Source: Phycisphaerales bacterium | Lineage (GTDB): Bacteria > Planctomycetota > Phycisphaerae > Phycisphaerales > UBA1924 | Assembly (NCBI GenBank): GCA_020853975.1 | Contig: JADYXW010000041.1 | Coordinates: 1 to 64,000 of the forward strand | DNA length: 64,000 nt | Reading direction: 5' to 3' | Shown here: positions 9,502 through 59,877 of the stretch, one piece after another | How positions within the stretch are numbered: position 1 is the first letter of the stretch | How the letters are laid out: each line of letters begins with the position of its first letter | Position numbers and translations under genes: made by a program | The notes under the pieces: model-generated | What the model saw: only the letters and a program-made list of their open reading frames with translations | What the model was told of the DNA's origin: nothing | Databases searched by the model: none

Positions 9502-9507
9502 AGAGTA
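9502..9507 (-). promoter_or_regulatory. Candidate -10 of the rhodanese lipoprotein gene
   Basis: On the minus strand TACTCT is followed by a 7-base spacer and the ATG at 9494, with no Shine-Dalgarno sequence between. This fits the short-leader pattern seen repeatedly in the window. Confidence 0.45.
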
Positions 9508-9509
9508 TC

Positions 9510-9528
9510 GCACCCGTCGGACGGGTGC
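9510..9528. promoter_or_regulatory. Perfect 9-bp palindrome, candidate operator
   Basis: GCACCCGTC G GACGGGTGC is a perfect 9-bp inverted repeat with a 1-base centre. It lies in the spacer between the divergent rhodanese and nDsbD-like genes and abuts the candidate -10 of the former. It is well placed to regulate both directions. As an RNA it could also form a hairpin, but no U-tract follows. Confidence 0.5.
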
Positions 9529-9578
9529 GCGGCCGGATGTCGCCGGGTTCGGGCGGGAGACTTCCAGGAACAGTACGC

Positions 9579-10460
9579 TTGCGCCAACAACCAGTTCCGT
9601 CTGCGATCGTGGTCGTGGCGGCTGCCTCCGGCGCTTTGGCTGCGCCCTCATTCGGCGGGGTCGATCCAACGCGCCACGCCACACCCACGCTGATCGCGGA
9701 AACCCGTAGCCTGGTTCCCGGACAGAATGCGATGCTCGCGGTTCAGTTCGAGATTGAGCCGCGGTGGCACCTGTACTGGCCGGGCCGTAACGACAGCGGC
9801 TTCGCGCCCAAGATCACGCTCAAGGGTCCGGAGGGGTACGAGTTCGGCGAGCCCCTGTGGCCCGCGCCGAAGCGACACGTCCAGGCCGGTGGCATCCTCG
9901 ATCACGTCTTCGAAGGGCGCCTCACGGTCCTCATCCCGCTCTCGGTTCCCAAGGGCGCGTCGGGCGAGGCCAAGTTTGAGGCGGACCTCTCCTGGCTGGC
10001 GTGCGAACGCGTGTGCGTGGCGGAGTCGGCGAGGGTGAACCTGACTCTGAAGATCGCGGCCGATGGCGAGAAACCTCTCGACGCGGCGGGCCGCGGGCTG
10101 ATCATCGCGGCCCGGGCGGCGGTTCCCAAGCCGATCGACGAGGCGAAACCGAAGGTTGTAGCCGCGGTCCACGCGGGCTCGCTCATCGTCGAGGCGCCCG
10201 GCGCCACGCGCATCGAGTTCTACCCATTCGAAGATTGCGTGGAGATTCCCGACCTCTTGGGTCGAGGGTCTGCCAAGGCCGCGAGGCTGGCTCTGCCCTT
10301 GGGCCGCGGGGAAGGTGAGGTCCGGGGTGTGGTGTCCGTGACCATGCCCGGTGCCGCGGGCGCTCCCGCCACGGCTGCGTCCTACAGCGTTGACCTGCCG
10401 GCGAAAGCCAAGGAACCCGAGCCGCCAAGGCCCGCCACGAATGCGGGCGGCACAAAGTGA
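9579..10460 (+). CDS. Stand-alone DsbD N-terminal-like (disulfide corrector) protein
   Basis: The mature part matches the N-terminal periplasmic domain of thiol:disulfide interchange protein DsbD: RWHLYWPGRNDSGFAPKI, WPAPKRH, GGILDHVFEG and the cysteine pair C142/C146 in LACERVCV. That domain passes electrons to periplasmic partners. Here it stands alone at 293 residues, without the DsbD membrane core or thioredoxin domain, followed by a Pro-rich tail. I prefer the TTG at 9579: AGGAA lies 8 bases upstream and it begins a good signal peptide (VPSAIVVVAAASGALAA). The track start, GTG 9525, lies inside the palindrome; ATG 9537 is a third option. The redoxin gene follows at 69 bases. Confidence 0.85.
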   Translation: MRQQPVPSAIVVVAAASGALAAPSFGGVDPTRHATPTLIAETRSLVPGQNAMLAVQFEIEPRWHLYWPGRNDSGFAPKITLKGPEGYEFGEPLWPAPKRHVQAGGILDHVFEGRLTVLIPLSVPKGASGEAKFEADLSWLACERVCVAESARVNLTLKIAADGEKPLDAAGRGLIIAARAAVPKPIDEAKPKVVAAVHAGSLIVEAPGATRIEFYPFEDCVEIPDLLGRGSAKAARLALPLGRGEGEVRGVVSVTMPGAAGAPATAASYSVDLPAKAKEPEPPRPATNAGGTK

Positions 10461-10529
10461 TGCGTGCGCCGGGGCGTGTGTCCCGGCGAAGGATCGAAGC
10501 GCCGAGGTACTGTGAAAGGAGTCATGAGC

Positions 10530-11276
10530 ATGAAGAACGTGAAACTTTTGAGTCTGTTCGCCGCGAGCACTGCGGCTCTCGCGATCGCGACGGGTGCGTC
10601 GGCCCAGAACACCAAGCCCGAGAAGCCGGCCAAGGAAGCCCCCGCCACCCAGCCGGAGAAGGACCACGGCAAGGACGAGAAGGGCGCCAAGGGTGACAAG
10701 GGCGAGAAGGCCCCGAAGGCAACCGCGGGTGTCGAGCCCGGGCAGCCCGCCCCCGCGTTCACGCTGAAGGACACCGAGGGCAAGGAGACCACGCTCGCCG
10801 AGCACATCAAGGCCGGCAAGATCGTCGTTCTCCAGTGGTTCAACCCCGAGTGCCCCTTCGTTGCGAAGCACTACAAGGAGACTAAGACCTTCAACGATCT
10901 CGCCACGACCTACGCCCCAAAGGGCGTGGTGTTCCTCGCGATCAATAGCGGCGCGCCCGGCGATCAGGGCGCGGGCGCGCGGGCCAACACCGAGGCGAAG
11001 AAGAACTGGGCCATTCCCTATCCCGTGCTTCTCGATGAGGCCGGCGCGGTCGGCCGCGCCTATGGCGCCAAGAACACCCCCACCATGGTCGTCATCGGCA
11101 AGGAAGGAAACGTCGCCTACTTCGGCGCCATCGACGACGACTCCGGGGCCGCCAAGCCCGGCAAGACCAACTACGTCGCCAAGGCCCTCGACGAGCTCCT
11201 CGCGGGCAGCAACGTGACCACGCCCAAAACCAAGCCCTACGGCTGCGCCGTCAAGTACGGCAAGAGCAAGGGCTGA
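10530..11276 (+). CDS. Exported redoxin (thioredoxin-fold) protein
   Basis: This periplasmic thioredoxin-fold protein has 248 residues. It has a signal peptide (residues 1-25, ending ATGASAQ), then a Lys/Glu/Pro-rich linker of about 45 residues, then a redoxin domain: GQPAPAFTLKDTEGKETTL, WFNPECPFVAKHY with a single peroxidatic-type C108, and the cis-proline segment NTPTMVVIG. A second cysteine, C239 in KPYGCAVKY, could be the resolving partner. The ATG at 10530 is chosen because AAGGAG sits 8 bases upstream; the ATG at 10524 is too close to it. It follows the nDsbD-like gene, which could be its reductant or partner; that is inference. A strong terminator follows. Confidence 0.9.
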   Translation: MKNVKLLSLFAASTAALAIATGASAQNTKPEKPAKEAPATQPEKDHGKDEKGAKGDKGEKAPKATAGVEPGQPAPAFTLKDTEGKETTLAEHIKAGKIVVLQWFNPECPFVAKHYKETKTFNDLATTYAPKGVVFLAINSGAPGDQGAGARANTEAKKNWAIPYPVLLDEAGAVGRAYGAKNTPTMVVIGKEGNVAYFGAIDDDSGAAKPGKTNYVAKALDELLAGSNVTTPKTKPYGCAVKYGKSKG

Positions 11277-11301
11277 TCGACCTGCGTTCCGAAACTTCCG
11301 G

Positions 11302-11340
11302 GGCCCCGGCTGTCATGCGCAGCCGGGGCCTCTTTGTTTC
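11302..11340 (+). terminator. Rho-independent terminator after the redoxin gene
   Basis: An 11-bp perfect stem, GGCCCCGGCTG (11302-11312) with CAGCCGGGGCC (11320-11330), has a 7-base loop and is followed by TCTTTGTTT. It ends the nDsbD-redoxin unit and isolates it from the RseP-like gene. Confidence 0.8.
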
Positions 11341-11376: not shown

Positions 11377-11382
11377 TAGGAT
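11377..11382 (+). promoter_or_regulatory. Candidate -10 of the RseP-type gene
   Basis: TAGGAT ends 6 bases before the ATG at 11389. It fits a leaderless promoter; however, the internal AGGA could instead act as a Shine-Dalgarno sequence at 7 bases, so the reading is ambiguous. Confidence 0.4.
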
Positions 11383-11388: not shown

Positions 11389-13581
11389 ATGAACAGTCTG
11401 ATGGCTTTTCTCGACGCGCTCCCCAACCTGCTGCTGGTCATCCTGGGCTTCGGGGCGGTTGTGTTCATCCACGAGCTTGGGCACTTCGTCGCTGCCCGCT
11501 GGGCGGGAATCCGGGTGCTTGCGTTCGCGATCGGCTTTGGGCCCGCGATCGCCTCGTTCCGAAGGGGCTGGGGCGTGCGCTTCGGCAGCAGCGAGAACGA
11601 CTACGAGCAGGCGAAGCTCGATTCAGTTCTCGCGGCGGGGGAGAAGCGGGAGAACGCCCGTGTCCGGCTCGCACGATCCAGCCCGACCGAGTACCGCCTC
11701 AACCTGCTGCCGCTCGGTGGGTACGTCAAGATGCTCGGCCAGGTGGATGGCGATCCGAGCCAGGTCAGCGACGCGGGGGACAGCTACCAGAACTGCCGCC
11801 CGGTGAAGCGGATGGTCGTGATCTCCGCGGGCGTCATCGCGAACATCATCTCCGCGGCGCTTCTGTTCATCCTCATCTACACTGTGGGGAAGCCCGAACT
11901 GCCGCCGGTGATCGGCATGGTCGCCGACGGCTACCCGGCTTCCGTCGCCCAAGTCCGCACAGAGGACGGCACCGCGATCGAGGGTGGCCTGCAGCCGGGG
12001 GACCGGGTGCTCGCCATCGACGGCGAACGCCCCAAGAAGTTCGACGAGATCGTGCTGACGGTCGCCATGGCCAAGAAGGGCACACCCCTCACCTTCACCG
12101 TGGAACGCCCGGGCGCCGGCGTGCTGGTCGCGAAGGTCACCCCCGACGTCAACCGGGCCACCGGGTTGCTGGATATCGGGATCGACAAGCCATCATCCGG
12201 CACTCTTGTCCGCCCGAAGAACGCGGAGCAGGAGAGCCACCTTCGAGAGGTCTTCGCGAAGATCGGGCTCGAGGGGCTGGACCCTGGGATGACGCTCATC
12301 TCGCTCGATGGGGCTGCCGCTTCCTCGGCCCAGGACCTGGTCCGCGCTGTGGCGGCGGGAAGCGGCCATCCACTCATCGCGACATTTAGAGGCGAGAACG
12401 GCACCAAGGACGTGACCATCCGCCCTCGCGCCGTGCTCCAGGCGGATTGGCTGCCGCGGGGCGGGACGTCGGTCATCCCGGTGACGCACCTGCTCGGACT
12501 TGCCCCGGTCATGAAGGTGGGCGACGCGGCTGACGCGGCATCGAAGGGCCTGGCCGACGGTGACATCTTCGCGCTGCTGGGCACTTCGGAGTTCCCAAGC
12601 GTCTCCCAGGGCATGGTGGAGATCCAGAGCCGCAAGGGCTCGACCATCCGCGTGGTTGTGCTCCGCAAGAGCGAGGACGGGTCGTTCCGCGAGGTGGATC
12701 TCGGCGAGGTGGCGGTCAACGGGAGGGGTCAGATCGGCTTTGGCAGCACGGACACCGCGAGCGAGCTTGCGATGCTCTCCATGCCTCCCCCCACGCTTCG
12801 CGCCGCACGGGGTGGCGACAACGGCGAGTTTGCCCCGGCGGCCACAACCCTCGTGCGCGTGCCCGGCTCCACTCTCGTCAGCATCGGGGGCCGGCCGGTC
12901 GGGAACTTCACGGAGATTCGAGAGGCGCTGAAGCTCGCGACATCGCAGGCTCACGCCGCGGGGTCGGGCCGGGCCTACGAAGCCGTGCAGCAGGGCACCG
13001 TACGTGTTCGGGTCGTGATGCGTCGGCCGGTAAAGGGTGTTCCGGACTCGAGCTCGCCCGAGGAGGAGATGACCTGGTCGCTCACGCCCGACGACGTGCG
13101 GGCGCTGCACCGACTTGGGTGGGAAGACCCGCTGGTCGCAACTGGCGTTTTCGAGCCGGAAGAGTTCGTGCTGAAGGCCGACGGCATCGTGGACGCCGTC
13201 TGGCTTGGAGTGCAGGACACGCATCGTGTCATGCTCAATGTCTACATGACCTTCGTGAGGCTGACCGAGGGCACCGTCAAGATCGAGCACCTCAAGGGCC
13301 CCGTGGGGATTGCCCACGTCGGCACGATGTTCGCGTCCCGCGGGCTCATGTCGCTGCTTTTCTTCCTCGCGCTCATCAGCGTCAACCTCGCGGTCGTCAA
13401 CTTCCTGCCGATCCCGTTCGTTGACGGCGGGCAGTTCCTGTTCCTGGTGTACGAGCAGCTCCGGGGGCGGCCGCCCTCGATCGCGTTCCAGAATATCGCG
13501 ACCATGGCGGGCCTGGCCCTCATCGTCTCGGTGTTCCTGGTCGTCACGTTCAATGACATCCGCGCCCTCTTCGGCCTCTAG
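11389..13581 (+). CDS. rseP: RseP-type site-2 protease with multiple PDZ modules
   Basis: This intramembrane zinc protease would cut anti-sigma factors or signal peptide remnants. HELGH is at residues 28-32 in the first membrane segment. The family hallmark NFLPIPFVDGGQFLFLVYE and two more membrane segments close the protein. At 730 residues it is much longer than the 420-450 usual for RseP. The extra length is a series of four PDZ-like modules: GGLQPGDRVLAIDG, GLEGLDPGMTLISLDG, ASKGLADGDIFALLG and a degenerate STLVSIGGRPVGNFTEI. The second and later copies are diverged. The alpha/beta hydrolase gene follows by 21 bases. Many bacteria place rseP beside dxr or bamA; that is not the case here. 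Confidence 0.93.
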   Translation: MNSLMAFLDALPNLLLVILGFGAVVFIHELGHFVAARWAGIRVLAFAIGFGPAIASFRRGWGVRFGSSENDYEQAKLDSVLAAGEKRENARVRLARSSPTEYRLNLLPLGGYVKMLGQVDGDPSQVSDAGDSYQNCRPVKRMVVISAGVIANIISAALLFILIYTVGKPELPPVIGMVADGYPASVAQVRTEDGTAIEGGLQPGDRVLAIDGERPKKFDEIVLTVAMAKKGTPLTFTVERPGAGVLVAKVTPDVNRATGLLDIGIDKPSSGTLVRPKNAEQESHLREVFAKIGLEGLDPGMTLISLDGAAASSAQDLVRAVAAGSGHPLIATFRGENGTKDVTIRPRAVLQADWLPRGGTSVIPVTHLLGLAPVMKVGDAADAASKGLADGDIFALLGTSEFPSVSQGMVEIQSRKGSTIRVVVLRKSEDGSFREVDLGEVAVNGRGQIGFGSTDTASELAMLSMPPPTLRAARGGDNGEFAPAATTLVRVPGSTLVSIGGRPVGNFTEIREALKLATSQAHAAGSGRAYEAVQQGTVRVRVVMRRPVKGVPDSSSPEEEMTWSLTPDDVRALHRLGWEDPLVATGVFEPEEFVLKADGIVDAVWLGVQDTHRVMLNVYMTFVRLTEGTVKIEHLKGPVGIAHVGTMFASRGLMSLLFFLALISVNLAVVNFLPIPFVDGGQFLFLVYEQLRGRPPSIAFQNIATMAGLALIVSVFLVVTFNDIRALFGL

Positions 13582-14561: not shown

Positions 14562-14567
14562 TACGAT
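14562..14567 (+). promoter_or_regulatory. Candidate -10 of deoC
   Basis: TACGAT is separated by only GGGGC (5 bases) from the ATG at 14573, consistent with a leaderless transcript. The GGGG run could alternatively serve as a weak, too-close Shine-Dalgarno. Confidence 0.4.
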
Positions 14568-16260: not shown

Positions 16261-16266
16261 TACACT
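16261..16266 (+). promoter_or_regulatory. Candidate -10 of the aldehyde dehydrogenase gene
   Basis: TACACT ends 6 bases (GAGCCC) before the ATG at 16273, with no Shine-Dalgarno sequence. This is the ideal geometry for a leaderless start. Confidence 0.5.
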
Positions 16267-16272: not shown

Positions 16273-17805
16273 ATGGGAACCAACGGCCGCCACCCCGCCT
16301 CAACGGTCGATTCAGCCGCGCCGGCTCGTGGCGTTGCCGCCGCCCGAACCGGGGGCCGGTGGGACTATGCCCCGGCCCCAGAGACCGTAAAGGTCCAGAT
16401 CAAACCAGCGTACGGCCACTACATCGGCGGCAAGTGGACACGCCCCGGAGCCAGCGCGTTTGCAACCATCAACCCGGCGACCGAGCAGCCCCTGGCGAAC
16501 ATTACACAGGGGTCTGAGAGGGACGTTGACCAGGCGGTGCAGGCGGCGGCGCGAGCCCTGCCCTCGTGGAGCGGGCTGCCCGCCCGCGAGCGAGCCAAGT
16601 TCCTGTTCCGCGTCTCCAGGCGTCTGCAGGAGCGTGCCCGCGAGTTCGCGGTGCTCGAGACCATGGACAGCGGCAAGCCGATCAAGGAGAGCCGCGACGT
16701 TGATGTGCCGCTGGCGGCGGCGCACTTCTTCTATCACGCGGGATGGGCGGACAAGCTCGCCTACGCCTTTGCGGGGCGCACGCCACGGCCTGTGGGAGTC
16801 TGCGGGCAGGTCATCCCCTGGAACTTCCCACTCCTCATGGCGGCGTGGAAGCTCGCACCCGCCCTCGCGTGCGGCAACACATGCGTGCTCAAGCCGGCGG
16901 AGACCACCCCGCTCACGGCGCTCAGGCTCGCGGAGGTCTTCGAAGAGTGCGGCGTGCCCGGGGGAGTGCTCAACGTTGTGACGGGCGATGGGCGCACGGG
17001 CGCCGCCATCGTGGGCCACCCGCATGTAGACAAGGTCGCCTTCACGGGATCGACGGAGGTGGGCAAGAAGATCGCCTCGGCGGTCGCGGCCCGCGGAGCG
17101 AAGCTGTCGCTCGAACTGGGCGGAAAGTCGCCCCACATCATCTTCGAGGACGCCAGCCTCGACCAGGCGGTCGAAGGGGTGATCGCCGGAATCTACTTCA
17201 ACCAGGGCGAGGTGTGCTGCGCCGGCTCGCGGCTGTTCGTACAGGAGAGCATCCTCCCCGAGGTGATCGCAAGGCTGGAGCGGCGTCTGGCGTCGCTCCG
17301 CGTGGGGGACCCTCTGGACAAGAACACGGACGTGGGCGCGATCAACAGCCGCGAGCAGCTCGACCGGGTGAACCGCTACGTGTCGCTCGGCCGCGAGGAG
17401 GGCGCGACGTACCACGAGGTGGCAAGCGGCGAGCTTCCCAGCCACGGCCTCTTCTGCCGCCCCTGCTTCTTCAGCAACGTCCAGCCGAGCCACACGATCG
17501 CGCGGGAGGAAATCTTCGGCCCGGTGCTGAGCGTGATGAGCTTCCGCACGCCGGAAGAGGCGGTGGCGCGTGCGAACAACAGCCCCTACGGCCTGGCGGC
17601 GGGCATATGGACGGACAAGGGTTCCAAGATCTTCGACATCGCCGGAAAGCTGAGGGCCGGCGTCGTCTGGTGCAACACCTACAACAAGTTCGACCCTGCC
17701 AGTCCCTTCGGCGGATACAAGGAGAGCGGATTCGGCCGCGAGGGCGGGCTGCAGGGACTGCGGGCGTATGTGACGCTGGAGGCCCCCTCAAGCCGAGCAC
17801 GCTAG
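16273..17805 (+). CDS. NAD(P)-dependent aldehyde dehydrogenase
   Basis: A full-length, 510-residue member of the ALDH superfamily that oxidises an aldehyde to its acid. Visible elements are the cofactor-binding IPWNFPLLMAAWKLAPAL and FTGSTEVGKKI, the general base E281 in LELGGKS, and the catalytic C315 in NQGEVCCAGSR. The C-terminal PFGGYKESGFGREGG is also intact. The track ORF begins at 15739, but the ATG at 16273 gives the normal length and lies 6 bases after a -10-like TACACT. The first 40 residues are a Gly/Ala-rich extension. Placement after deoC suggests acetaldehyde as a substrate (inference). It resembles the N-terminal half of ALDH16 proteins and is followed by a degenerate second copy. 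Confidence 0.93.
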   Translation: MGTNGRHPASTVDSAAPARGVAAARTGGRWDYAPAPETVKVQIKPAYGHYIGGKWTRPGASAFATINPATEQPLANITQGSERDVDQAVQAAARALPSWSGLPARERAKFLFRVSRRLQERAREFAVLETMDSGKPIKESRDVDVPLAAAHFFYHAGWADKLAYAFAGRTPRPVGVCGQVIPWNFPLLMAAWKLAPALACGNTCVLKPAETTPLTALRLAEVFEECGVPGGVLNVVTGDGRTGAAIVGHPHVDKVAFTGSTEVGKKIASAVAARGAKLSLELGGKSPHIIFEDASLDQAVEGVIAGIYFNQGEVCCAGSRLFVQESILPEVIARLERRLASLRVGDPLDKNTDVGAINSREQLDRVNRYVSLGREEGATYHEVASGELPSHGLFCRPCFFSNVQPSHTIAREEIFGPVLSVMSFRTPEEAVARANNSPYGLAAGIWTDKGSKIFDIAGKLRAGVVWCNTYNKFDPASPFGGYKESGFGREGGLQGLRAYVTLEAPSSRAR

Positions 17806-19807: not shown

Positions 19808-22687
19808 ATGAGCGGAATTTCGACCGGCGTGGGGCTGTTCAGCGGGATCGACAGCGCCTCCATCATCCAGCAGCTTCTCAAGGTGGAGGCTCGCCCCCGG
19901 GACCTGGTCGCCGCCCGCGTTGCTCAGCTTCAGCTCCAGCAGACCGGGTACCTCGACATCAACTCCCGGCTTTCGGCACTCCGTGACGCGGCGAAGGCGT
20001 TCCGGGACAAGAAGACCTTTTCCACCCGCTCGGCGACCTCTTCGGATTCCGACGTCCTGCGGGGCACCGCGGGCCCCACCGCCGCCAACGGCACGTACAC
20101 GTTCCTCGTCGATCGCCTGGTGACGACGCAGCAGATGCTCAGCCGGGGCTTCGCGAACTCCGACGTCGCGGCGCTGGGCGCAACCAGCTTCAGCTTTGAG
20201 CCCGCGCACGCGAGGCTGGACACCGACGTGGCGTTGGCGGACCTGAACGACGGCGCCGGGGTCTCCCGCGGGCGCATCGTGGTCACCGACTCCGCCGGCG
20301 TCTCCGCGACGATCGATCTCTCTCGCGCCACCACGGTCGGTGACGTTCTGCAGGCCATCAACGACAACGGCTCTGCCCGAGTATCGGCGAGTGTGAGCGG
20401 CGGGCGGCTGGTCCTGAAGGACACCGCGGGGGGCGGCGGGACGATGACGGTCGCCAACGGCACGGGCTACACGACCGCGGCGAGCCTGGGCATCGCGGGT
20501 GCCGCTTCGGGCGGAACCCTCACCGGCTCGGTCATCCACCGGCTCCATGGTAACGTGACCCTCGCCAACCTTAACGACGGGCGGGGCGTCAATATCCGCA
20601 GTGCCAGCGGCACCGGTACCTCGGTCTGGAACTTCAAGATCTCAGTCAGCGGCTCCGACGCCTTCATCAACGTGGGCGACGTCTACGAAACGCAGAACGT
20701 CAATGGGGTAGATCAGCTCGTAAAGGTTGAGGGCGAGGTCTCCACGATGCAGGGGCTGGTGGACCGCATCAACGAGCAACTCGCGGATCAGGGCTTCACC
20801 GACGTCACCGCTTCCATCGATCAGAGCAACGGCAGGCTCGTCATCACCGAGAGCTCGGGCTCGCGGACCATCACGGTCTCCGAGAACCCGACGCTGGGCT
20901 CCACCACGGCGGCCGACCTGGGAATCCTCGGCTCTGCGACCGGCACCCTCAGCGGCAGCCGCCTGCTCGCGGGCCTCAACACCTCGCTGCTGCGCGGGCT
21001 GAATGGGGGTGCGGGGCTGACCGGCGACGGCAAGGTGTTCATCACCACCCGCAACGGCACCAACTATGACTTCGACCTCGACCTCGTAAACGGCAGCGTG
21101 GCCGAACTGATCGCCGCGGTCGACACGGCGACAAGCGGAGCGGTCCGGCTCTCTCTCAACGAGCGTGGCAATGGATTCGAGCTCACGGACCTGACGGGGG
21201 GTAGCGGCAACCTCATCGTCACCGGCAGCACGGGGGCCGACACCGCGGCATCGCTCGGGCTTTCAACGGGCGCTACGGGTGTGGCCTCCGCGACCGTCAG
21301 TGCGAACAACCTGCAGAGGCAGTACGTCAGCCGGTCCACGACGCTGGCGTCCGTGAACGCGGGCCGTGGCGTGGGCACGGGCACCTTCCGCATCACCGAC
21401 TCCACCGGCGTTTCGCAGACCGTGAACATCGACGCCAACACCCGCACGATGGGCGACGTGATCACGAAGATCAACGCCCTGGGTCTGAAGGTGAAAGCCT
21501 CGATCAACTCCACCGGCGACGGGCTGGTGATCAGCGAAGACAACACCTCAACCCCAGCGGGAACCCTGAAAATCAAGATCGAGGACGTCTCCGGCACCGC
21601 CGCGAAGGCCCTGAACCTCGCGAAGACAGCGGAGGACACGGGGTCCTCCAACTTCGTCGACGGGTCCTTCGAGCGGGTCGTCGAGTTTTCCGCGGCGGAC
21701 ACTCTGCAGCAGGTGATCGACAAGATCAACCAGGCCGGCGCGGGGGTTTCGGCGGCTCTGGTGAGAGACGGCGCGGGGGCCACCCCCTACCGGCTGAGCC
21801 TCACCAGCAGCTCAAGCGGGACCGCCGGGCGCTTTCTTCTCGACACGGGCTCATTCTCCCTGGCACCTCAGACCCTGGAACTCGGTCGCGACGCGCTCAT
21901 GTTCTATGGGTCGACGGACGCCGCCCGTGCGATCGCGGTCACCAGCAGCACGAACACGGTGGACACGCTGCTTCCGGGCGTGCGTCTTGACCTGGCCCGG
22001 CGCTCGGATGATCCGGTGACCATGACCATCGCAACCGACACGGAGGCGATCTTCTCGGAGATCGACGCGTTCGTGAAGTCCTTCAACACGGTGGTATCCC
22101 GCATCGCGGAGCAGACCAAGTACGTCGAAGAGACCCAGCAGAAGGGCGCACTGCTCGGCGACAGCACGATGCTGGAGGTCAGGTCCTCCCTCTTCCGCAC
22201 CATCCAGGCCGCCGGCATCGGCACCTCGGGCCGCTTCGAGACCCTCGCGGAAATCGGGATCACCATCGGTGAGGGCGGCTCTCTGAAGCTGGATGAAACC
22301 CGGTTGCGATCGGCCCTCGACGAGGACCCCGCCAGCGTCGAATCGCTCTTCACGACCCGCGAGCAGGTGCAGGACGCGGAGATCGAGGTGCCCGGGCTGC
22401 CCGGCGTCACGGTCCGGAACCCCAACGCGGGCAACACGTTCTCCGCCCTGGGCGTCATCGGCCAGATCGAGCAGCTCGCCACGCGGTTCATCGACTCCAC
22501 CAGCGGCGTGCTGACGGGCAGGACGAAGGCCATCGAGGAGCAGATCCGCCTGCAGCAGGCCCGCGTCACCGCCATGAATCAGCGTCTGTTGAGCAAGCAG
22601 GAGATCCTCCAGAAGCAGTTCCTGGCTATGGAGACCGCCATCGGCAAGTTGCAAACCCAGCAATCCGCCCTCGCCTCGCTGGGCTGA
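19808..22687 (+). CDS. fliD: Flagellar hook-associated protein 2 (filament cap), expanded
   Basis: FliD caps the growing flagellum and helps flagellin subunits polymerise. Residues 1-115 match the N-terminal domain (SGIDSASIIQQLLKVEARP, QLQLQQTGYLDINSRLSALRDAAKAFRD). Residues from about 695 match the C-terminal domain (RAIAVTSSTNTVDTLLPGVRLDL...FVKSFNTVVSRI...GVIGQIEQLATRFIDSTSGVL) and end in the coiled coil with MNQRLLSKQEILQKQFLAMETAIGKLQ. The middle of about 570 residues is an array of four related modules beginning near residues 134, 243, 383 and 505. Each has an LNxGxGV start, an ITDxxG strand and a DV...IN flagellin-type motif. At 959 residues it is roughly twice the enterobacterial size. 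AGAGGAG lies 9 bases before the ATG. Confidence 0.94.
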   Translation: MSGISTGVGLFSGIDSASIIQQLLKVEARPRDLVAARVAQLQLQQTGYLDINSRLSALRDAAKAFRDKKTFSTRSATSSDSDVLRGTAGPTAANGTYTFLVDRLVTTQQMLSRGFANSDVAALGATSFSFEPAHARLDTDVALADLNDGAGVSRGRIVVTDSAGVSATIDLSRATTVGDVLQAINDNGSARVSASVSGGRLVLKDTAGGGGTMTVANGTGYTTAASLGIAGAASGGTLTGSVIHRLHGNVTLANLNDGRGVNIRSASGTGTSVWNFKISVSGSDAFINVGDVYETQNVNGVDQLVKVEGEVSTMQGLVDRINEQLADQGFTDVTASIDQSNGRLVITESSGSRTITVSENPTLGSTTAADLGILGSATGTLSGSRLLAGLNTSLLRGLNGGAGLTGDGKVFITTRNGTNYDFDLDLVNGSVAELIAAVDTATSGAVRLSLNERGNGFELTDLTGGSGNLIVTGSTGADTAASLGLSTGATGVASATVSANNLQRQYVSRSTTLASVNAGRGVGTGTFRITDSTGVSQTVNIDANTRTMGDVITKINALGLKVKASINSTGDGLVISEDNTSTPAGTLKIKIEDVSGTAAKALNLAKTAEDTGSSNFVDGSFERVVEFSAADTLQQVIDKINQAGAGVSAALVRDGAGATPYRLSLTSSSSGTAGRFLLDTGSFSLAPQTLELGRDALMFYGSTDAARAIAVTSSTNTVDTLLPGVRLDLARRSDDPVTMTIATDTEAIFSEIDAFVKSFNTVVSRIAEQTKYVEETQQKGALLGDSTMLEVRSSLFRTIQAAGIGTSGRFETLAEIGITIGEGGSLKLDETRLRSALDEDPASVESLFTTREQVQDAEIEVPGLPGVTVRNPNAGNTFSALGVIGQIEQLATRFIDSTSGVLTGRTKAIEEQIRLQQARVTAMNQRLLSKQEILQKQFLAMETAIGKLQTQQSALASLG

Positions 22688-24170: not shown

Positions 24171-24176
24171 TATGCT
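24171..24176 (+). promoter_or_regulatory. Candidate -10 of the BatA-like gene
   Basis: TATGCT ends 5 bases (CGTCC) before the GTG at 24182, with no Shine-Dalgarno sequence. Confidence 0.45.
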
Positions 24177-27281: not shown

Positions 27282-27287
27282 AGGTTA
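27282..27287 (-). promoter_or_regulatory. Candidate -10 of the gene at 27275
   Basis: On the minus strand TAACCT is followed by TGTGGC (6 bases) and the ATG. The same hexamer precedes rlmE. Confidence 0.45.
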
Positions 27288-32070: not shown

Positions 32071-32076
32071 ATAATA
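32071..32076 (-). promoter_or_regulatory. Candidate -10 of coaX (TATTAT)
   Basis: TATTAT on the minus strand, close to the TATAAT consensus, ends 5 bases (CGATC) before the ATG. There is no Shine-Dalgarno. This is the clearest leaderless-type start in the window. Confidence 0.6.
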
Positions 32077-33756: not shown

Positions 33757-33762
33757 TACCAT
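33757..33762 (+). promoter_or_regulatory. Candidate -10 of ispH
   Basis: TACCAT ends 5 bases (CACCC) before the ATG at 33768; no Shine-Dalgarno is present. Confidence 0.45.
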
Positions 33763-42880: not shown

Positions 42881-43783
42881 CTACCGCGGGGCCTCCCAGG
42901 GTGTGCCGGGCTTGTAGCCCACCAGTGAGTACAACTCCTGACGGGTCTGCATCTGGGGCAGCAGGTCCTCCGCTGTCCCGGTCCGGTGCAGTTCTTCCAA
43001 CGCCCGGGCCACGGCGCCCATCGCAACACGGAGCATCGTCACCGGATAGATCACGATCGAGTAGCCCATGGACTCGAAGCGCTCTAGCGGGAGCATGGGC
43101 GTCTTACCAAACTCCGTCATGTTTGCGAGGAGGAAAGGGCCGCCCTCGGGCGCCGGGCCGGACAGGCCCCTCATGGCCCGCGCAAAGGTCTCGAACTCGG
43201 CCTCGGAGACGAGCCCCTCGGGGAAGATCATGTCGGCCCCGGCACGCACATACGCGGCGGCCCGGTCGATCGCCGCCTCCAGGCCATCGACGCCTCTGGC
43301 GTCGGTCCGCGCACAGATGACGAACGCCCCGCCGCTGCAGTCCCTGGAAGCCTTCGCGGCCCACTGCACCTTCTCGATCATGTGGTCGGTGGGGACCAGT
43401 TCCTTTCCGTCCAGATGCCCGCAGCGCTTTGGGAACCTTTGATCCTCGATATGCAGGCCAGCGGCCCCCGCCCGTGCGTAGTCCAGCACCGTCCGGCGGA
43501 CCATCTCCGCCTCGCCAAAGCCCGTGTCCGCGTCCGCGAGCACCGGCAAGCCGGACGCGTCCGCGACCTCGCGGATGCAGCGGCAGAAGTGCTCAAGGCC
43601 AAGCAGGCCCACGTCGGGAACGCCCGCGCTCACGCTGGTCGCGGCGCCGGAGACGTAGCACGCCTGGAATCCTGCGCGCGCGACCGCCATGGCGCAGAGT
43701 GCGTTGAACGCGCCCGGCGCCGCAACGCAGCCGAGGCTCATGGCGGCGCGCAACCTCGTGCCGGGATGTGTCGTGATCGTCAT
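42881..43783 (-). CDS. prpB: Isocitrate lyase/PEP mutase family, probable 2-methylisocitrate lyase
   Basis: The 300-residue TIM-barrel enzyme probably splits 2-methylisocitrate into pyruvate and succinate in propionate catabolism. Motifs include CVAAPGAFNALCAMAVARAGFQACYVSGAA, LPVLADADTGFG (metal ligand region), GLHIEDQRFPKRCGHLDGKELV with the catalytic KRCGH, and ICARTDARGVDGL. The ATG at 43783 is preferred; TACGAT ends 6 bases before it, so it may have its own leaderless promoter. The two-component genes lie upstream on the same strand. prpC and prpD are not in the window. Related lyases such as carboxyphosphonoenolpyruvate mutase cannot be fully excluded. Confidence 0.88.
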   Translation of the reverse strand: MTITTHPGTRLRAAMSLGCVAAPGAFNALCAMAVARAGFQACYVSGAATSVSAGVPDVGLLGLEHFCRCIREVADASGLPVLADADTGFGEAEMVRRTVLDYARAGAAGLHIEDQRFPKRCGHLDGKELVPTDHMIEKVQWAAKASRDCSGGAFVICARTDARGVDGLEAAIDRAAAYVRAGADMIFPEGLVSEAEFETFARAMRGLSGPAPEGGPFLLANMTEFGKTPMLPLERFESMGYSIVIYPVTMLRVAMGAVARALEELHRTGTAEDLLPQMQTRQELYSLVGYKPGTPWEAPR

Positions 43784-43789: not shown

Positions 43790-43795
43790 ATCGTA
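43790..43795 (-). promoter_or_regulatory. Candidate -10 of prpB
   Basis: On the minus strand TACGAT is followed by GGGCCC (6 bases) and the ATG at 43783. The same hexamer precedes deoC. Confidence 0.45.
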
Positions 43796-46085: not shown

Positions 46086-46091
46086 TAGAAT
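46086..46091 (+). promoter_or_regulatory. Candidate -10 of rsmB (TAGAAT)
   Basis: TAGAAT, one mismatch from consensus, ends 5 bases (CACGC) before the GTG at 46097; no Shine-Dalgarno is present. It lies in the 32-base gap between the divergent kinase and rsmB genes. Confidence 0.55.
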
Positions 46092-49107: not shown

Positions 49108-51093
49108 ATGCCCACCACGCTGCTAGAGAACCTCCGCACGCCGCACGACCTCAGGGCCATCCCCGTGGCACAGTTGCCGCAACTGGCGGCGGAAATCCGG
49201 GGTGTCATCACCTCGCAGGTCTCGAAGGCGGGAGGGCACCTGGCGCCGAATCTGGGGGTGGTCGAGCTGACCATTGCGCTCCACTACGTTTTCGATTTCT
49301 CTTTCGACCGCCTGCTCTTTGACGTGGGCCATCAGTGCTATCCGCACAAGCTGCTGACCGGGCGGTTGGAGAAGTTCTCGGGGCTGCGGACGCGGGAGGG
49401 CGTCGCCGGGTTCCCGGAGCCGCGTGAGAGCCCGTTCGACCTCTTCAGTGTGGGACACGCGGGCACGGCGATCTCGACCGCGGTTGGAATGGCGCGGGGC
49501 GATACGCTGAACAAGGATGCCTTTGACCCCAAGACCAACCCCAACGGGAGGCGGGTCGTCTCGCTCATCGGCGACGCGTCGATCGTGAACGGCGTCGCCA
49601 TGGAAGGGCTCAACAACGCGGGAACGCTCAAACGACAGTTCCTGGTGGTGCTGAACGACAATGGGATGTCCATCAGCAAGCCTCAGGGGGCGCTCTCCCA
49701 CTACTTCGACAGGCTGCGGCTGTCGCCGTTCTACAGCGACCTCAAGAGGCAGGCGAAGGAAGCCCTTCGCGGGATGCCGGGCGGAGAGACGCTCCGGGGG
49801 ACGTACCACAAGCTGGGCGAGGCCTGTAAGGCCGTTGCGAACGAGGGCGCCTGGTTCGAGCACTTCGGGCTGGTCACGGTCGGCCCGATCGACGGGCACG
49901 ACATCCCCAGGCTGATCGAGTACCTCAGAGAAGCGAGGGACTTCGACCGCCCCATGGTGTTGCACGTGCACACGGTCAAGGGCAAGGGCTACGAGTTCTC
50001 GGAGACCGACAGCACGACGTTTCACTCGCCCCCCGCGTTCAAGATGGAGCCGGGGCTGGAGAAGCAGGGCTGCCGCGTCGAACTCCGCACCGAAGGGCGC
50101 AGCTTCACCACGGCCTTTGCCGACGCGCTGGGCGACCTCATGGAGCGGGACCCGAAGATTGTCACCTGCACCGCGGCGATGCCCGACGGCACGGGGCTAA
50201 GCAAGATCCTTCCCCGCTTTCCGGAGCGAGCTTGGGACGTGGGCATCTGCGAAAGCCACGCCATGGACATGATGGCGGGCCTGGCCAAGACCGGCTGGAA
50301 GCCCTTCCTCGCGGTGTACTCCACGTTCTTCCAGAGAGCCTTTGATCAGGCGTTCCAGGAGGCGTCGCTTCAGGGCTTGCCGGTCAGGCTGTGCCTGGAT
50401 CGGGCGGGTTTGGTCGGCGGCGACGGCGCGGTGCACCACGGTTTCTGCGACATCGCGCTTCTCCGGACGCTCCCCGGGGCCACGATCACCGCGGCGATCG
50501 ACGAGCCGAGCCTCGTCGCGGCACTCGAGTTCATGAGGGGGTACGACGACGGGCTCTCGGCCGTGCGGTACCCGCGTGAGGCCGTGAGCGACCGTTTGAC
50601 CATGGCAAAGTGCCCGCCGTTCGTGCTCGGCAAGGGCCGCTGCCTGACCCCTCAGTTCGACGTGCTGGAGGGAGGGTCCGTCCCCGATGCCGCGGTGCTG
50701 GCGTTCGGGACCATCGCATTCAGCGCGCTGGAAGCCTCGGGCTCGCTCCTCGCGGCGGGCGACGTGGCGGTGTGGGATGCTCGGTTTGCAAAGCCCGTGG
50801 ACACGGCCCTGATCCGCCGCCTGGTCGAGCTGCGGGTACCCATCGTGACCGTCGAGGACCATGGCGTGACGGGCGGCTTCGGCTCCGCGGTGCTCGAGGC
50901 AGCGTCGGCCATGGGGCTTGACACCTCCGGCATCACGCGTCTGGGTCTGCCTGACGCCTGGATCTACCAGGGCTCGCGGGCGGGGCAGCTCGCGGAGGTC
51001 GGGCTCGACGCCGCGGGCATCGCCCGGTCGACGGCGGCGGTGATGGCGGGAAGGCCGCGCGACCGTTCCGCCGTGAAGTCCGCGCGGGCCTGA
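49108..51093 (+). CDS. dxs: 1-deoxy-D-xylulose-5-phosphate synthase
   Basis: DXS condenses pyruvate and glyceraldehyde-3-phosphate with thiamine diphosphate, the first step of the MEP pathway. The 661 residues include SKAGGHLAPNLGVVELTIALHYVF, the DVGHQCYPHKLLTGR loop, and a cofactor motif that reads GDASIVNGVAMEGLNNAG instead of the usual GDGxxxxG. Also present are GPIDGHD and the glutamate-containing GICESHAMDMMAGLA of the pyrimidine-binding domain. A linker domain is intact. It is followed by nadK at 87 bases; the downstream gene may share its transcript. Confidence 0.94.
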   Translation: MPTTLLENLRTPHDLRAIPVAQLPQLAAEIRGVITSQVSKAGGHLAPNLGVVELTIALHYVFDFSFDRLLFDVGHQCYPHKLLTGRLEKFSGLRTREGVAGFPEPRESPFDLFSVGHAGTAISTAVGMARGDTLNKDAFDPKTNPNGRRVVSLIGDASIVNGVAMEGLNNAGTLKRQFLVVLNDNGMSISKPQGALSHYFDRLRLSPFYSDLKRQAKEALRGMPGGETLRGTYHKLGEACKAVANEGAWFEHFGLVTVGPIDGHDIPRLIEYLREARDFDRPMVLHVHTVKGKGYEFSETDSTTFHSPPAFKMEPGLEKQGCRVELRTEGRSFTTAFADALGDLMERDPKIVTCTAAMPDGTGLSKILPRFPERAWDVGICESHAMDMMAGLAKTGWKPFLAVYSTFFQRAFDQAFQEASLQGLPVRLCLDRAGLVGGDGAVHHGFCDIALLRTLPGATITAAIDEPSLVAALEFMRGYDDGLSAVRYPREAVSDRLTMAKCPPFVLGKGRCLTPQFDVLEGGSVPDAAVLAFGTIAFSALEASGSLLAAGDVAVWDARFAKPVDTALIRRLVELRVPIVTVEDHGVTGGFGSAVLEAASAMGLDTSGITRLGLPDAWIYQGSRAGQLAEVGLDAAGIARSTAAVMAGRPRDRSAVKSARA

Positions 51094-52062: not shown

Positions 52063-52068
52063 TATGAT
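52063..52068 (+). promoter_or_regulatory. Candidate -10 of the second pseudopilin gene (TATGAT)
   Basis: TATGAT ends 5 bases (CTTCA) before the GTG at 52074 with no Shine-Dalgarno. It lies just after the nadK stop. Confidence 0.55.
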
Positions 52069-52073: not shown

Positions 52074-52748
52074 GTGCAACGGGGATTCACACTCATCGAA
52101 CTGCTCGTGGTTATCGCAATCATCGCGCTCTTGCTGGGCATTCTGCTGCCCACGCTCGCAGCGGGCCGCGAGGCCGCCCGGGCCTCGGTGTGCATGTCCA
52201 ACGAGCGTCAGGCGTTCATCGCGATCCGGGCGTACGCGGACGAGAACAAGGGGCAGACACCCGCCCTGGGGGTGCCGTACGCGGCGCTCCCGAACTGGGG
52301 GCTGGTCGTGCAGGCAACCGCCGGGCTGAACGGCAGCACCTCGGCGGAGCTCTTCGCTGCGGGCTCCGTCCTGGTCTGCCCGACGGCTCGGGGGAAGTAT
52401 GGCCCGTCTATGCAGCGGACCTATGCCATCAACGTGACGGGACACGCGGGGACTGGCACCGACCCGGACCACTATGACGCCGGAGCTGGGGCAGCGATCC
52501 GGATCGACCGCGTCGATCGTCCCTCCGACCGCGCGCTGCTCGTGGACTCGAAGCCGGCCCCGGTGACCCCCCCGGCACCGCCCCCCACCCGCACCGCGAG
52601 CGTCATCGACTTCCGCGACCCCCTGACCACCGAGGCGCGGCTCTCACGAATCCACTCCTCGGGCCGCGGGTGGAACACCGGGATGCTCGACGGCTCCGCC
52701 CGTCTCTTCACCGAGATCCCCGGACTCTGGACGGAACCCCTGCCCTGA
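52074..52748 (+). CDS. Pseudopilin-like prepilin protein
   Basis: The 224-residue protein has an extremely short leader (MQR) before [33 protein letters not shown], the prepilin peptidase motif and helix. An extracytoplasmic domain follows, ending with [12 protein letters not shown], a diverged DG motif typical of planctomycete members. A Pro/Thr-rich stretch ([12 protein letters not shown]) lies around residue 165. The start is the GTG at 52074. It is unrelated in detail to the protein at 32105 beyond the shared N-terminus. Confidence 0.88.
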
Positions 52749-55251: not shown

Positions 55252-57519
55252 TCACGGGCCCCGGAGAAGCTCGAGCCTCAGGACCGCGTGACCATCGAGC
55301 TGGAAGTACTCCACCTCGATCTGCACCCTGGCGTCGCTCGGCAGGTCGAAGGTGCCGGAGTCCTGGGCCGGGGCATGGTGTGTCCAGTCTTCGATCACGG
55401 TGCGGGGCTCGGCGCCGTCGATACGGACCCGGACCCGCACGCCGTCGTCACTGGTCGTTCGGACCGTCCACGCCCCGGCTGGCAGTGGCAGCTCGGTCAA
55501 CGCGATGATCCCATAGTTCGAGCCACCGGGCAGGCTGTCTCGGGCGACACCCAGGCCGGGCAGGGAGCGCAGACCGCCCCCTCCCAACGGGAGGTTGAGG
55601 TCGCCGCGAAGTTGGAAGGACGTGCCGCCCGGGCCGGCCGCTCGCCAAGCGGCAAGGTCCTGCCTCGGGTCCACTGGGGAGGGAAATGCGGAGCAGTGCC
55701 AAGTCGTCCGCAGCATGGCGCCCTGCTTCTGCCAGGAAGCGCCTCCCGCATCGACGGAGAGCGCGTACTGGCACAGGCCCTCTGCCACAGGCACGCACTC
55801 GATCTCAACCATGCCGTCGCGGTTCCATACGCGGGCATGTACGTCATCAGAGGCCCCAACCACGGCTCGCGTCGCACCGAAGACCTGCCAGCGATCCGCA
55901 CCGGCGCCGGCCCCCGCGTACCGCATCATGGGCGACTCATGGTCCCACGGCCCCCACTCCCCCATGATGATGTGCTGGCGTCCCCTCAACGCAGCTCGGG
56001 CTCCCAGGGGGCTCGACAAGCCTTCGGCCTTCCACGCTCCGGAGGTGGAGGGCCGCTCGGCGGCTCCATCGGTCAGGAGCGAGATGCCAGCGGAGAGATC
56101 GAACTCCTGCGCTCCGTCCGACGCAAGCTCGACGACGTTCGCGTGATACGCGTTGCCCTTCGCGTGGGTGCCGTCCGGGTCTCGCACCTGCAGCACCGTC
56201 AGGGGAGGAGGCTTGCCCCCGACCCAGGCGAATGGGTGGTGTCCGTCAATACGAACGAGGTTGTGCGAGAACTCGTTGTGCGAGGGCCCCTTGTAGCGAG
56301 CTCTCACTCCCGGCGTAGCGAGCAGCCCCTTGTCGTCGTCCCACCAGAGGTGAAGCGCGACGCGGTTGTTGACGAAGGTATTGTTGCGGATGAGGTGACC
56401 CCCGCCGTGCTCGATGTTGATCGCGCCGCGCTCGAGCCCGTAGCCCATTGCGCCGTTATCTTCGAACGTGTTGTCCTCGACGGCCCAGCCGTTGGAGTAC
56501 CCGCCCCAGATGCCGCAGATCGCGTTGTCCACGATGCGATTGGCGATGACGATGCAGCGATCACTGAACGTGTGCTCCAGGCCGTGGGCGACAGCATGAC
56601 TCAGGTCGTTGCCGATGAAGACGTTCTCGGTACAGCCCGCGGCTGCGTAGTCAAAGTCCGGGCTCGGGGGCGGAGTCTCACCCAAGCTCTCCTTGCCCCC
56701 GAAACCGAAGAACCCGTCCCCGCCGTGGGTCGCCGAGTTCTCGATGAAGATGTTGCGCTGGCAGGCCTCGAAGCAGAGGATTCCGGCGGAGTCCTGCCCT
56801 CGGTTGTACACGTCGTGGCTGTATCCGCGGACGCAGAAATCAAGGGCATTTCTCGACACGAGGTTGTCGGAGCTTCGCCAGAGTGCGAGCCCCCACCCGG
56901 ACAGGAAAGACGCGTCGCAGTCCACGATGCGTGACCTCTGCACGCGGTCGAGGATGATGCCGTTCTGCCCGGTTCGGACGCGGACATCGCGGATGGCCAC
57001 TCCCGACGCCCGCTCCACGACGACGGCCCCTCCATAGCGGCTCATCCACTCGTGCCGATCGTTCTCGTGAGGCCACAACCAATCGGCAGAATCCTCTCGC
57101 TGCGGGGTGCTGCGGAGCCGCTGGCGGAAGTTGTCGTGGAAGCGGGCGCCCTCGAGCCCGAAGCCATCGCAGTTCGAGGCATAGAGGCCGACCTTGTAGC
57201 CGGCAACCTTGGCGTGCTCGATTCGCACGCGCCGCACGCCGTCGACGCGAACGCCGATCCCCGTGAGAGTGTCCCAGGCCGCCAGCCCGGGCGTGTCCCC
57301 GACACTGGCTCCTCTCAGCACGGCCCCGGGCTCGAATCGCACCGTAACGTCGTCGGCGACGACATGGATGACGCCGTCGCCGTCGGTGTCCGGGATGATC
57401 GTTCCCTCGGGGACGCGGATGATGCAGGACTCGGTGATGCGGACATTGTCCCGGTCCACGACCACAACCGGGAGGTCCGCGTGCTGCACGAGGAGTGAGA
57501 TCACGAGCGGGGTCAGCAT
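55252..57519 (-). CDS. Secreted right-handed parallel beta-helix protein
   Basis: The 755-residue protein has an N-terminal export signal (MLTPLVISLLVQHADL). A long region of short turns rich in Asn, Gly and Val follows, typical of a parallel beta-helix (NosD/pectate lyase-like). Examples are NIFIENSATHGGDG, CIVIANRIVDNAICGIWGG and LIRNNTFVNNRVALHLWWDD. The last 200 residues form a beta-rich domain with GAWTVRTTSDDGVRVRVRIDG, which resembles PA14-type carbohydrate-binding folds. A polysaccharide-binding or -degrading role is plausible but unproven. I moved the start to the ATG at 57519, which follows TAGGCT by 5 bases. Confidence 0.82.
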   Translation of the reverse strand: MLTPLVISLLVQHADLPVVVVDRDNVRITESCIIRVPEGTIIPDTDGDGVIHVVADDVTVRFEPGAVLRGASVGDTPGLAAWDTLTGIGVRVDGVRRVRIEHAKVAGYKVGLYASNCDGFGLEGARFHDNFRQRLRSTPQREDSADWLWPHENDRHEWMSRYGGAVVVERASGVAIRDVRVRTGQNGIILDRVQRSRIVDCDASFLSGWGLALWRSSDNLVSRNALDFCVRGYSHDVYNRGQDSAGILCFEACQRNIFIENSATHGGDGFFGFGGKESLGETPPPSPDFDYAAAGCTENVFIGNDLSHAVAHGLEHTFSDRCIVIANRIVDNAICGIWGGYSNGWAVEDNTFEDNGAMGYGLERGAINIEHGGGHLIRNNTFVNNRVALHLWWDDDKGLLATPGVRARYKGPSHNEFSHNLVRIDGHHPFAWVGGKPPPLTVLQVRDPDGTHAKGNAYHANVVELASDGAQEFDLSAGISLLTDGAAERPSTSGAWKAEGLSSPLGARAALRGRQHIIMGEWGPWDHESPMMRYAGAGAGADRWQVFGATRAVVGASDDVHARVWNRDGMVEIECVPVAEGLCQYALSVDAGGASWQKQGAMLRTTWHCSAFPSPVDPRQDLAAWRAAGPGGTSFQLRGDLNLPLGGGGLRSLPGLGVARDSLPGGSNYGIIALTELPLPAGAWTVRTTSDDGVRVRVRIDGAEPRTVIEDWTHHAPAQDSGTFDLPSDARVQIEVEYFQLDGHAVLRLELLRGP

Positions 57520-57524: not shown

Positions 57525-57530
57525 AGCCTA
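57525..57530 (-). promoter_or_regulatory. Candidate -10 of the beta-helix gene
   Basis: On the minus strand TAGGCT is followed by TCACG (5 bases) and the ATG at 57519, without a Shine-Dalgarno. Confidence 0.4.
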
Positions 57531-58070: not shown

Positions 58071-58105
58071 GAAAAAACGCCCGAATTGCGGGGGTTTTTG
58101 TCGGG
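58071..58105 (-). terminator. Terminator of the EEP nuclease gene
   Basis: On the minus strand GCCCGA and TCGGGC form a 6-bp stem, with an extra inner CCCG/CGGG option, followed by GTTTTTT. It lies after the nuclease stop and just upstream of the HU promoter. Confidence 0.6.
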
Positions 58106-58158
58106 CATCAGCTTTCGTGGGCTTGAGAGTTTCCGGAAATGGCCTGAAAGCGACGGTT

Positions 58159-58959: not shown

Positions 58960-58975
58960 AGCAGTCGGCGGGGGC

Positions 58976-58981
58976 GATACT
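58976..58981 (+). promoter_or_regulatory. Candidate -10 of the kinase gene at 58987
   Basis: GATACT ends 5 bases (TCCGC) before the GTG at 58987. It departs from TANNNT at the first base but keeps the A and final T. Confidence 0.3.
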
Positions 58982-58986
58982 TCCGC

Positions 58987-59838
58987 GTGGTTGGCGTCTG
59001 GATCATCCTCGGAATCGCGTTTGGTGCGGGCGCGACGGCGCTCGCCGCGTGGTGGCGGATCAGGCGTTCGAGCGCGCGGGCCCGCGTGGCGGAGCGCCGA
59101 GCACGGGCCGCGGAGCGCCTAGCGGAGCTGGGGGCCATGACCGGGGGGCTCGCCCACGAGATCAAGAACCCGCTGTCCACGATCGGCCTGAACGCCCAGT
59201 TGCTGGCGGAGGGGATCGATGAACTGCCCGCCGACGCCCCGCCGGACCCCGAACTCAAGCAGAGACTCTCGCGGCGGCTCACATCGCTGCGTCGCGAGAC
59301 CGAGCGGCTGCGGGGCATCCTGACCGATTTCCTGAGCTATGCAGGGGAAGTGCGGGTCGACCTCAAGGCCACGGACATCAACGAGGTCGTGTCGGAGTTG
59401 GCCGACTTCTTCGGCCCACAGGCTCAGCAGCAGGGCGTGCGGATGAGGCTGGACGCTCCGGGGGGCACGGTTCGGGCCCACGTCGACCCTGCCTTGCTGA
59501 AGCAGGCCCTGCTGAATCTGGCACTCAACTCGGTGCAGGCGCTGGCCTCGATGCCGGCGGGTTCCGGACCCCGTGAACTGATCCTGAAGACCAGCCGCGG
59601 TCACGACGCCGAGAAGGTGCCGGTGGTGGAGATTCGCGTCATCGACACCGGGCCGGGGATGGCGCCGGAAGTCCTGGCGAACCTCTTCACTCCATACTTC
59701 ACGACCAAGGCGGGAGGGTCCGGGCTGGGCCTGCCGACGACGCGGAGGTTGATCGAGGCCCAGAACGGCCGCATCGAGGTGCACTCGGAACCGGGGCGGG
59801 GCACGGTGTTCACCATCGCGTTTCCGGCGTTGGCGTAG
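58987..59838 (+). CDS. Membrane-anchored histidine kinase
   Basis: The 283-residue kinase has one N-terminal membrane segment (IILGIAFGAGATALAAWW), a short coiled coil, and no separate sensor domain. The phospho-acceptor box is GGLAHEIKNPLSTIGLNAQLL. The ATPase domain has NLALNSVQAL, VIDTGPGMAPE and GGSGLGLPTTRRLIE. This plan matches NtrB/AtoS-type kinases that usually signal to sigma-54 activators, but no response regulator is in this cluster. The track starts at 58837 inside the divergent nuclease gene; the GTG at 58987 removes that overlap. The FHA-kinase gene follows by 39 bases. Confidence 0.88.
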   Translation: MVGVWIILGIAFGAGATALAAWWRIRRSSARARVAERRARAAERLAELGAMTGGLAHEIKNPLSTIGLNAQLLAEGIDELPADAPPDPELKQRLSRRLTSLRRETERLRGILTDFLSYAGEVRVDLKATDINEVVSELADFFGPQAQQQGVRMRLDAPGGTVRAHVDPALLKQALLNLALNSVQALASMPAGSGPRELILKTSRGHDAEKVPVVEIRVIDTGPGMAPEVLANLFTPYFTTKAGGSGLGLPTTRRLIEAQNGRIEVHSEPGRGTVFTIAFPALA

Positions 59839-59866
59839 TCAGGCAACTCCGGGGGGAACCCGCCCG

Positions 59867-59872
59867 TATGGT
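59867..59872 (+). promoter_or_regulatory. Candidate -10 of the FHA-kinase gene (TATGGT)
   Basis: TATGGT ends 5 bases (TTGCG) before the GTG at 59878, with no Shine-Dalgarno. Confidence 0.45.
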
Positions 59873-59877
59873 TTGCG

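What the first reader, a model, noticed from the sequence alone, without database searches (positions are those of the whole stretch)
9502..59877. Widespread leaderless or near-leaderless promoters: TANNNT hexamer 5-7 bases before the start codon
Seen directly: at least fourteen genes on both strands have a -10-like hexamer ending 5-7 bases before the chosen start codon, usually with no Shine-Dalgarno sequence. They are coaX TATTAT(5), rsmB TAGAAT(5), the pseudopilin at 52074 TATGAT(5), BatA-like TATGCT(5), FHA-kinase TATGGT(5), ispH TACCAT(5), deoC TACGAT(5), beta-helix TAGGCT(5), kinase 58987 GATACT(5), rseP-type TAGGAT(6), ALDH TACACT(6), prpB TACGAT(6), the gene at 27275 TAACCT(6) and rhodanese TACTCT(7). 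A -10 whose start point falls on the start codon is the hallmark of leaderless genes in Mycobacterium and Deinococcus. Other genes here (fliD, iscX, HU, redoxin) have normal Shine-Dalgarno leaders, so two modes coexist. -35 elements are mostly unclear. Caveat: I looked for the hexamers after picking starts, and TANNNT is short.
Basis: partly seen in the sequence, partly recalled or inferred. Interest (0 to 1): 0.78.

Follow-up and report, generated by a model that had tools for sequence, protein, structure and literature searches.

The report
Leaderless gene promoters in a planctomycete
About one gene in six in this uncultured planctomycete has its promoter's -10 box directly in front of the start codon, so its messenger RNA should begin at the start codon with no ribosome-binding leader, a habit known from Mycobacterium and Deinococcus that DNA comparison now extends to this phylum.

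Summary
All 14 listed sites are in the sequence as described (13 TANNNT plus one GATACT). I called genes on 1.06 Mb of the same 3.1 Mb genome with a codon-only model that never looks upstream. TANNNT peaks 5-10 bases before 792 starts (134 hits, about 18 expected). In the window 8 of 51 genes have it at 5-7 bases (0.4 in shuffles); elsewhere 85 of 741 (5.0 in shuffles). TANNNT is the most enriched of all 64 XYNNNZ patterns. These genes almost never carry a Shine-Dalgarno (4% against 41%) and are rare inside tightly packed operons, as expected for a promoter and not for a ribosome signal. Orthologues keep the hexamer and its position (17 of 20 pairs outside ispH, against 24 of 323 for other genes) while other bases change. 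The same peak occurs in relatives from genus to order and in nine other GC-rich Planctomycetota, but not in five lower-GC ones. Leaderless or near-leaderless transcription from a sigma-70 -10 box is the best reading, for roughly 15-20% of genes. It matches Deinococcus closely, so it is a known kind in a phylum where I found no direct report. No transcript 5' ends were available.

The parts
9502..9507 (-). -10 TACTCT, gap 7, before rhodanese gene 9033-9494(-)
   Evidence: Rhodanese domain supports this start over the codon-only start 9311
11377..11382 (+). -10 TAGGAT, gap 6, before M50 protease (rseP-type) 11389-13581(+)
   Evidence: blind start agrees; Peptidase_M50
14562..14567 (+). -10 TACGAT, gap 5, before deoC-like aldolase at 14573(+)
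   Evidence: blind start is 14633, so this start is uncertain
16261..16266 (+). -10 TACACT, gap 6, before aldehyde dehydrogenase 16273-17805(+)
   Evidence: blind start agrees; Aldedh
   Evidence: FtsJ
24171..24176 (+). -10 TATGCT, gap 5, before BatA-like VWA protein at 24182(+)
   Evidence: Pfam BatA matches from residue 1 of this start
27282..27287 (-). -10 TAACCT, gap 6, before DUF6614 gene 26937-27275(-)
   Evidence: DUF6614 matches from residue 1
32071..32076 (-). -10 TATTAT, gap 5, before coaX 31223-32065(-)
   Evidence: Pan_kinase
33757..33762 (+). -10 TACCAT, gap 5, before ispH 33768-34835(+)
   Evidence: TANNNT at the same place in most same-genus and several same-family ispH genes
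   Evidence: kept in two relatives
43790..43795 (-). -10 TACGAT, gap 6, before PEP-mutase/prpB gene 42881-43783(-)
   Evidence: domain fits this start better than blind start 43741
46086..46091 (+). -10 TAGAAT, gap 5, before rsmB 46097-47530(+)
   Evidence: NusB domain supports this start
52063..52068 (+). -10 TATGAT, gap 5, before pseudopilin 52074-52748(+)
   Evidence: N_methyl motif at residues 2-25; sister genome has TACGAT at the same place
57525..57530 (-). -10 TAGGCT, gap 5, before beta-helix protein 55252-57519(-)
   Evidence: conserved in sister genome
58976..58981 (+). GATACT, gap 5, before histidine kinase 58987-59838(+); a variant that is not TANNNT
   Evidence: NATANT variants also show an excess at gap 5-8 in other genes, 5 against 0.4
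59867..59872 (+). -10 TATGGT, gap 5, before FHA-GAF histidine kinase 59878-61593(+)
   Evidence: relatives have TATCGT and TACACT at the same place

Best explanation
The hexamers are -10 elements of sigma-70 (RpoD-type) promoters placed so that transcription starts on, or within a few bases of, the start codon. The mRNA then has no leader, or a very short one, and no Shine-Dalgarno; the ribosome is expected to recognise the 5'-terminal start codon directly. About 15-20% of this Phycisphaerales genome's genes use this mode, alongside SD-led genes whose -10 boxes lie about 20-70 bases upstream. Shown here: the positional peak, its specificity, exclusion of SD, promoter-like distribution, conservation. 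Inferred: start point on the start codon, sigma identity, ribosome mode.
For: Peak at gap 5-10: 134 hits in 792 blind starts against about 18 expected, and about 5 per position at 14,006 internal ATG/GTG. Best of 64 patterns, 119 against 11.7. Start-agnostic count: 204 of 754 genes have a candidate start with TANNNT at 5-10, against 55-61 at control gaps. SD in 5/134 against 267/658, P=3e-20. TA-led fraction 26% for divergent genes, 4% for co-directional genes at most 10 bases apart, where SD is 46%. Orthologue conservation 17/20 against 3/124 (SD genes) and 21/199 (neither), P=6e-15, ispH left out. Controls with annotated starts: Thermus plasmid 9 against 1.4, E. coli 0 against 3.7. RpoD and a second sigma-70 present.
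Against: No RNA 5'-end data. Gap 8-10 cases imply leaders of about 2-4 bases, so 'near-leaderless' for those. Some hits are chance (about 18 of 134).
Confidence: 0.9

Rival explanations
1. The hexamer is a translation signal: an AT-rich patch or non-canonical ribosome-binding site (ribosomal protein S1 or unfolded mRNA) and not a promoter.
For: Nakagawa 2017 (PMC5397173) could not separate leaderless signals from S1 sites in non-SD genes, one planctomycete included.
Against: A ribosome signal should be as common in operon-internal genes, yet TA-led falls to 4% there while SD stays at 46%. The signal is a sharp TA...T with free middle bases, not general AT richness, and TANNNA and TANNNC are below background there.
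Confidence: 0.05
2. Selection artefact: the hexamers were found because starts were picked next to them.
Against: The peak appears with starts chosen without upstream information, in a genome sample excluding the window, and in a count over all candidate starts; E. coli gives none.
Confidence: 0.01
3. Real -10 boxes, but the main transcripts of these genes start further upstream from a second promoter, so the leaderless message is minor.
For: Not testable without RNA; some TA-led genes follow a co-directional neighbour closely (31.6% TA-led at 11-40 base spacing) and may also be read from upstream.
Against: Near absence of SD in these genes (4%) would leave a longer transcript without a canonical ribosome site.
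Confidence: 0.04

Closest known systems
-10-motif leaderless genes of Deinococcus-Thermus (Zhong 2025, PMC12340547)
   Same: TANNNT 6-7 bases before the ORF, TACACT common, no -35 in most such genes, coexisting with GGAG ribosome sites.
   Different: Nearly one-third of genes there, roughly 15-20% here; that phylum has experimental proof, this one has none; the peak here is broader (5-10).
TA-led genes of Zheng 2011 (PMC3160421), Actinobacteria and others
   Same: TAnnnT about 10 bases upstream of the start in high-GC genomes; proportion near the 20% of Actinobacteria.
   Different: Planctomycetes are not in that paper's list of groups with detected leaderless genes.
Leaderless transcriptome of Mycobacterium tuberculosis (PMC3898074; listed, not read)
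   Same: By title and my own knowledge: extensive leaderless mRNAs from TANNNT promoters, GTG starts used.
   Different: Unrelated phylum; transcript ends mapped there.

Membership tests
Bacterial leaderless (TA-led) genes | TAnnnT signal at a fixed short distance from the start, above background | tested here: met
Bacterial leaderless (TA-led) genes | No Shine-Dalgarno in the same genes | tested here: met
   5/134 against 267/658
Bacterial leaderless (TA-led) genes | Promoter-like distribution: transcription-unit first genes, not operon-internal | tested here: met
   26% divergent against 4% tightly packed
Bacterial leaderless (TA-led) genes | Transcript 5' end on the start codon | not testable with these tools
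   No RNA data held
Deinococcus -10-motif promoters | No -35 element in the leaderless class, -35 in the classical class | tested here: inconclusive
   Own genome: TTG at spacer 16-18 in 0/90 leaderless against 21/184 leadered, P=2e-4; in relatives no difference, 7/85 against 24/287
Deinococcus -10-motif promoters | Bases 1, 2 and 6 irreplaceable | tested here: inconclusive
   Kept in orthologues while the middle bases vary; function not assayed

The most novel reading that the evidence does not exclude
Leaderless transcription is a general, inherited mode of gene expression across GC-rich Planctomycetota, and in this family it uses -10-only promoters while leadered genes keep the classical -35/-10 pair, so promoter architecture and translation mode are coupled.
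Probability: 0.35. Interest if true: 0.6.

Novelty: new member of a known kind. Interest (0 to 1): 0.45.

Why it matters
Planctomycetes were reported to use few SD sites (PMC5397173) without a settled explanation. A hexamer in promoter position gives a simple explanation for part of that and predicts exact 5' ends. It also means that gene finders tuned to SD sites or codon usage may misplace starts here: 4 of the 14 window starts move when domain boundaries are considered. The distribution in the phylum (present in GC-rich, absent in the sampled lower-GC genomes) makes the evolution of leaderless expression testable outside Actinobacteria and Deinococcota.

Tried and rejected
A -35 difference between leaderless and leadered genes looked strong in the own genome but did not replicate across relatives as a whole; within the own genus and family leaderless genes still show almost none. 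Extended -10 (TGn) shows no enrichment. A dip at gap 7 looked meaningful but shrank when all candidate starts were counted (50, 62, 34, 36 for gaps 5-8), so I treat it as partly a caller artefact. The 16S 3' end is not in the assembly match (only positions 9-873), so the anti-SD could not be read. Rfam finds nothing in the window.

Full report
What the window is. The window is bases 1-64000 of a 94.5 kb contig of a 3.12 Mb draft genome, 68% GC. Its dxs protein is 94% identical to one in contig QWIH01000014.1 and about 60-75% identical to those of many Phycisphaerales records, so it is a Phycisphaerales member of the Planctomycetota. The QWIH record is titled Leptolyngbya, which is most likely a mislabel.

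Checking the listed sites. Each of the 14 hexamer/gap/start combinations is present at the gene named. Pfam confirms the gene names: type III pantothenate kinase, RsmB with NusB, pseudopilin N-methylation motif, BatA, FHA plus histidine kinase, IspH (LytB), DeoC, beta-helix, histidine kinase, M50 protease, aldehyde dehydrogenase, PEP mutase, DUF6614 and rhodanese. One site, GATACT at 58976, is not TANNNT.

Removing the selection bias. I wrote a gene caller that chooses starts from codon usage and start-codon type only, never from upstream sequence, and ran it on 1.06 Mb of the same genome. Relative to 792 starts, TANNNT counts by gap are 5:39, 6:42, 7:12, 8:26, 9:8, 10:7, against about 3 per position from 15 upward. 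At 14,006 in-frame internal ATG/GTG codons it occurs about 5 times per position. In the window alone 8 of 51 genes have it at 5-7 bases (shuffle mean 0.37); in the rest 85 of 741 (shuffle mean 5.0). Among all 64 patterns XYNNNZ, TANNNT is the most enriched (119 against 11.7; the next is 31 against 9.9). Counting over every candidate start removes dependence on start choice and still gives 204 of 754 genes, against 55-61 at control gaps. The estimate is therefore roughly 15% (blind starts) to 19% (start-agnostic) of genes.

Promoter or ribosome signal. SD (GGAG/GAGG/AGGA just upstream of the start) occurs in 5 of 134 TA-led genes and 267 of 658 others (P=3e-20). TA-led genes are 26% of divergently transcribed genes and 32% of co-directional genes with an 11-40 base gap, but 4% of genes at most 10 bases behind a co-directional neighbour, where SD reaches 46%. 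That is the pattern of a promoter. The commonest hexamers are TACGCT, TACCCT, TACCAT, TACACT and TACGAT. In SD-led divergent genes TANNNT is instead enriched about 20-70 bases upstream, so leadered transcripts coexist.

Comparative evidence. IspH starts are fixed by the conserved N-terminus up to the GFCAGV motif. In same-genus genomes the hexamer reads TACCAT, TAGCAT, TACCAT, TAGAAT and TAGAAT 5-6 bases before the start, while two same-genus genomes carry an SD-like GGAG; same-family genomes give TACAAT and TATCAT at 5, and others TACGAT or TATCAT at 9-10. Leaving ispH out, 17 of 20 orthologue pairs of TA-led genes keep TANNNT at 5-10, against 3 of 124 for SD-led and 21 of 199 for genes with neither (P=6e-15). 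In several pairs only positions 1, 2 and 6 survive, for example TATGGT, TATCGT and TACACT before the FHA kinase.

Spread in the phylum. In samples of about 30-60 kb the peak is present in 5 same-genus genomes (32 against 5.1 expected), 4 same-family (17 against 2.5), 5 same-order (16 against 5.5) and 9 other planctomycetes above 60% GC (44 against 8.3), and absent in 5 lower-GC genomes (10 against 8.8). Pooled named Phycisphaerales loci show it too. Single small samples are noisy, and several genomes are individually not significant. Controls: a Thermus thermophilus plasmid with annotated starts gives 9 against 1.4, E. coli K-12 gives 0 against 3.7.

The -35 question. In the own genome none of 90 leaderless promoters with their own intergenic space has TTG at spacer 16-18, against 21 of 184 leadered candidates (P=2e-4). 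Across relatives there is no difference (7/85 against 24/287); the own genus and family still show nearly none. I report this as tentative.

Against what is known. Zheng 2011 (PMC3160421) describes TAnnnT signals in high-GC leaderless genomes and lists groups with detected leaderless genes; Planctomycetes are not among them. Nakagawa 2017 (PMC5397173) saw, in one planctomycete, a bias that could be leaderless mRNA or S1 binding. Zhong 2025 (PMC12340547) shows by experiment that TANNNT in front of ORFs is a working -10 promoter in Deinococcus, mostly without -35. [quoted passage not shown] I found no direct report for Phycisphaerae in the open library; subscription papers were not searchable.

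Verdict. The observation and its interpretation both stand. It is a new lineage for a known mechanism, not a new mechanism.

Noticed in passing
L062 (QWIH01000014.1), L086, L108, L118: Public records titled Leptolyngbya, Vicinamibacteraceae, Candidatus Kuenenia and Singulisphaera carry dxs genes that group with Phycisphaerales at 66-94% identity, which suggests mislabelled draft genomes.
   Followed up: no
window 49108-51093(+): dxs looks like a leadered gene: TTG-type -35 and TAGGAT -10 with the -10 box some 60 bases upstream of the start.
   Followed up: partly
window 19808-22687(+): FliD-like protein is unusually long (959 aa); the best FliD family matches lie in its C-terminal part, leaving a long N-terminal stretch unassigned.
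   Followed up: no
own-genome sample, all contigs: Gap 7 between hexamer and start is rarer than 6 and 8 at blind starts (12 against 42 and 26); the dip shrinks when all candidate starts are counted and is only partly explained.
   Followed up: partly
G062, G038, G056, G061, G049 samples: Planctomycetota samples of 41-58% GC show no TANNNT peak before starts; whether this is loss, GC dependence or poorer start calling there is open.
   Followed up: partly
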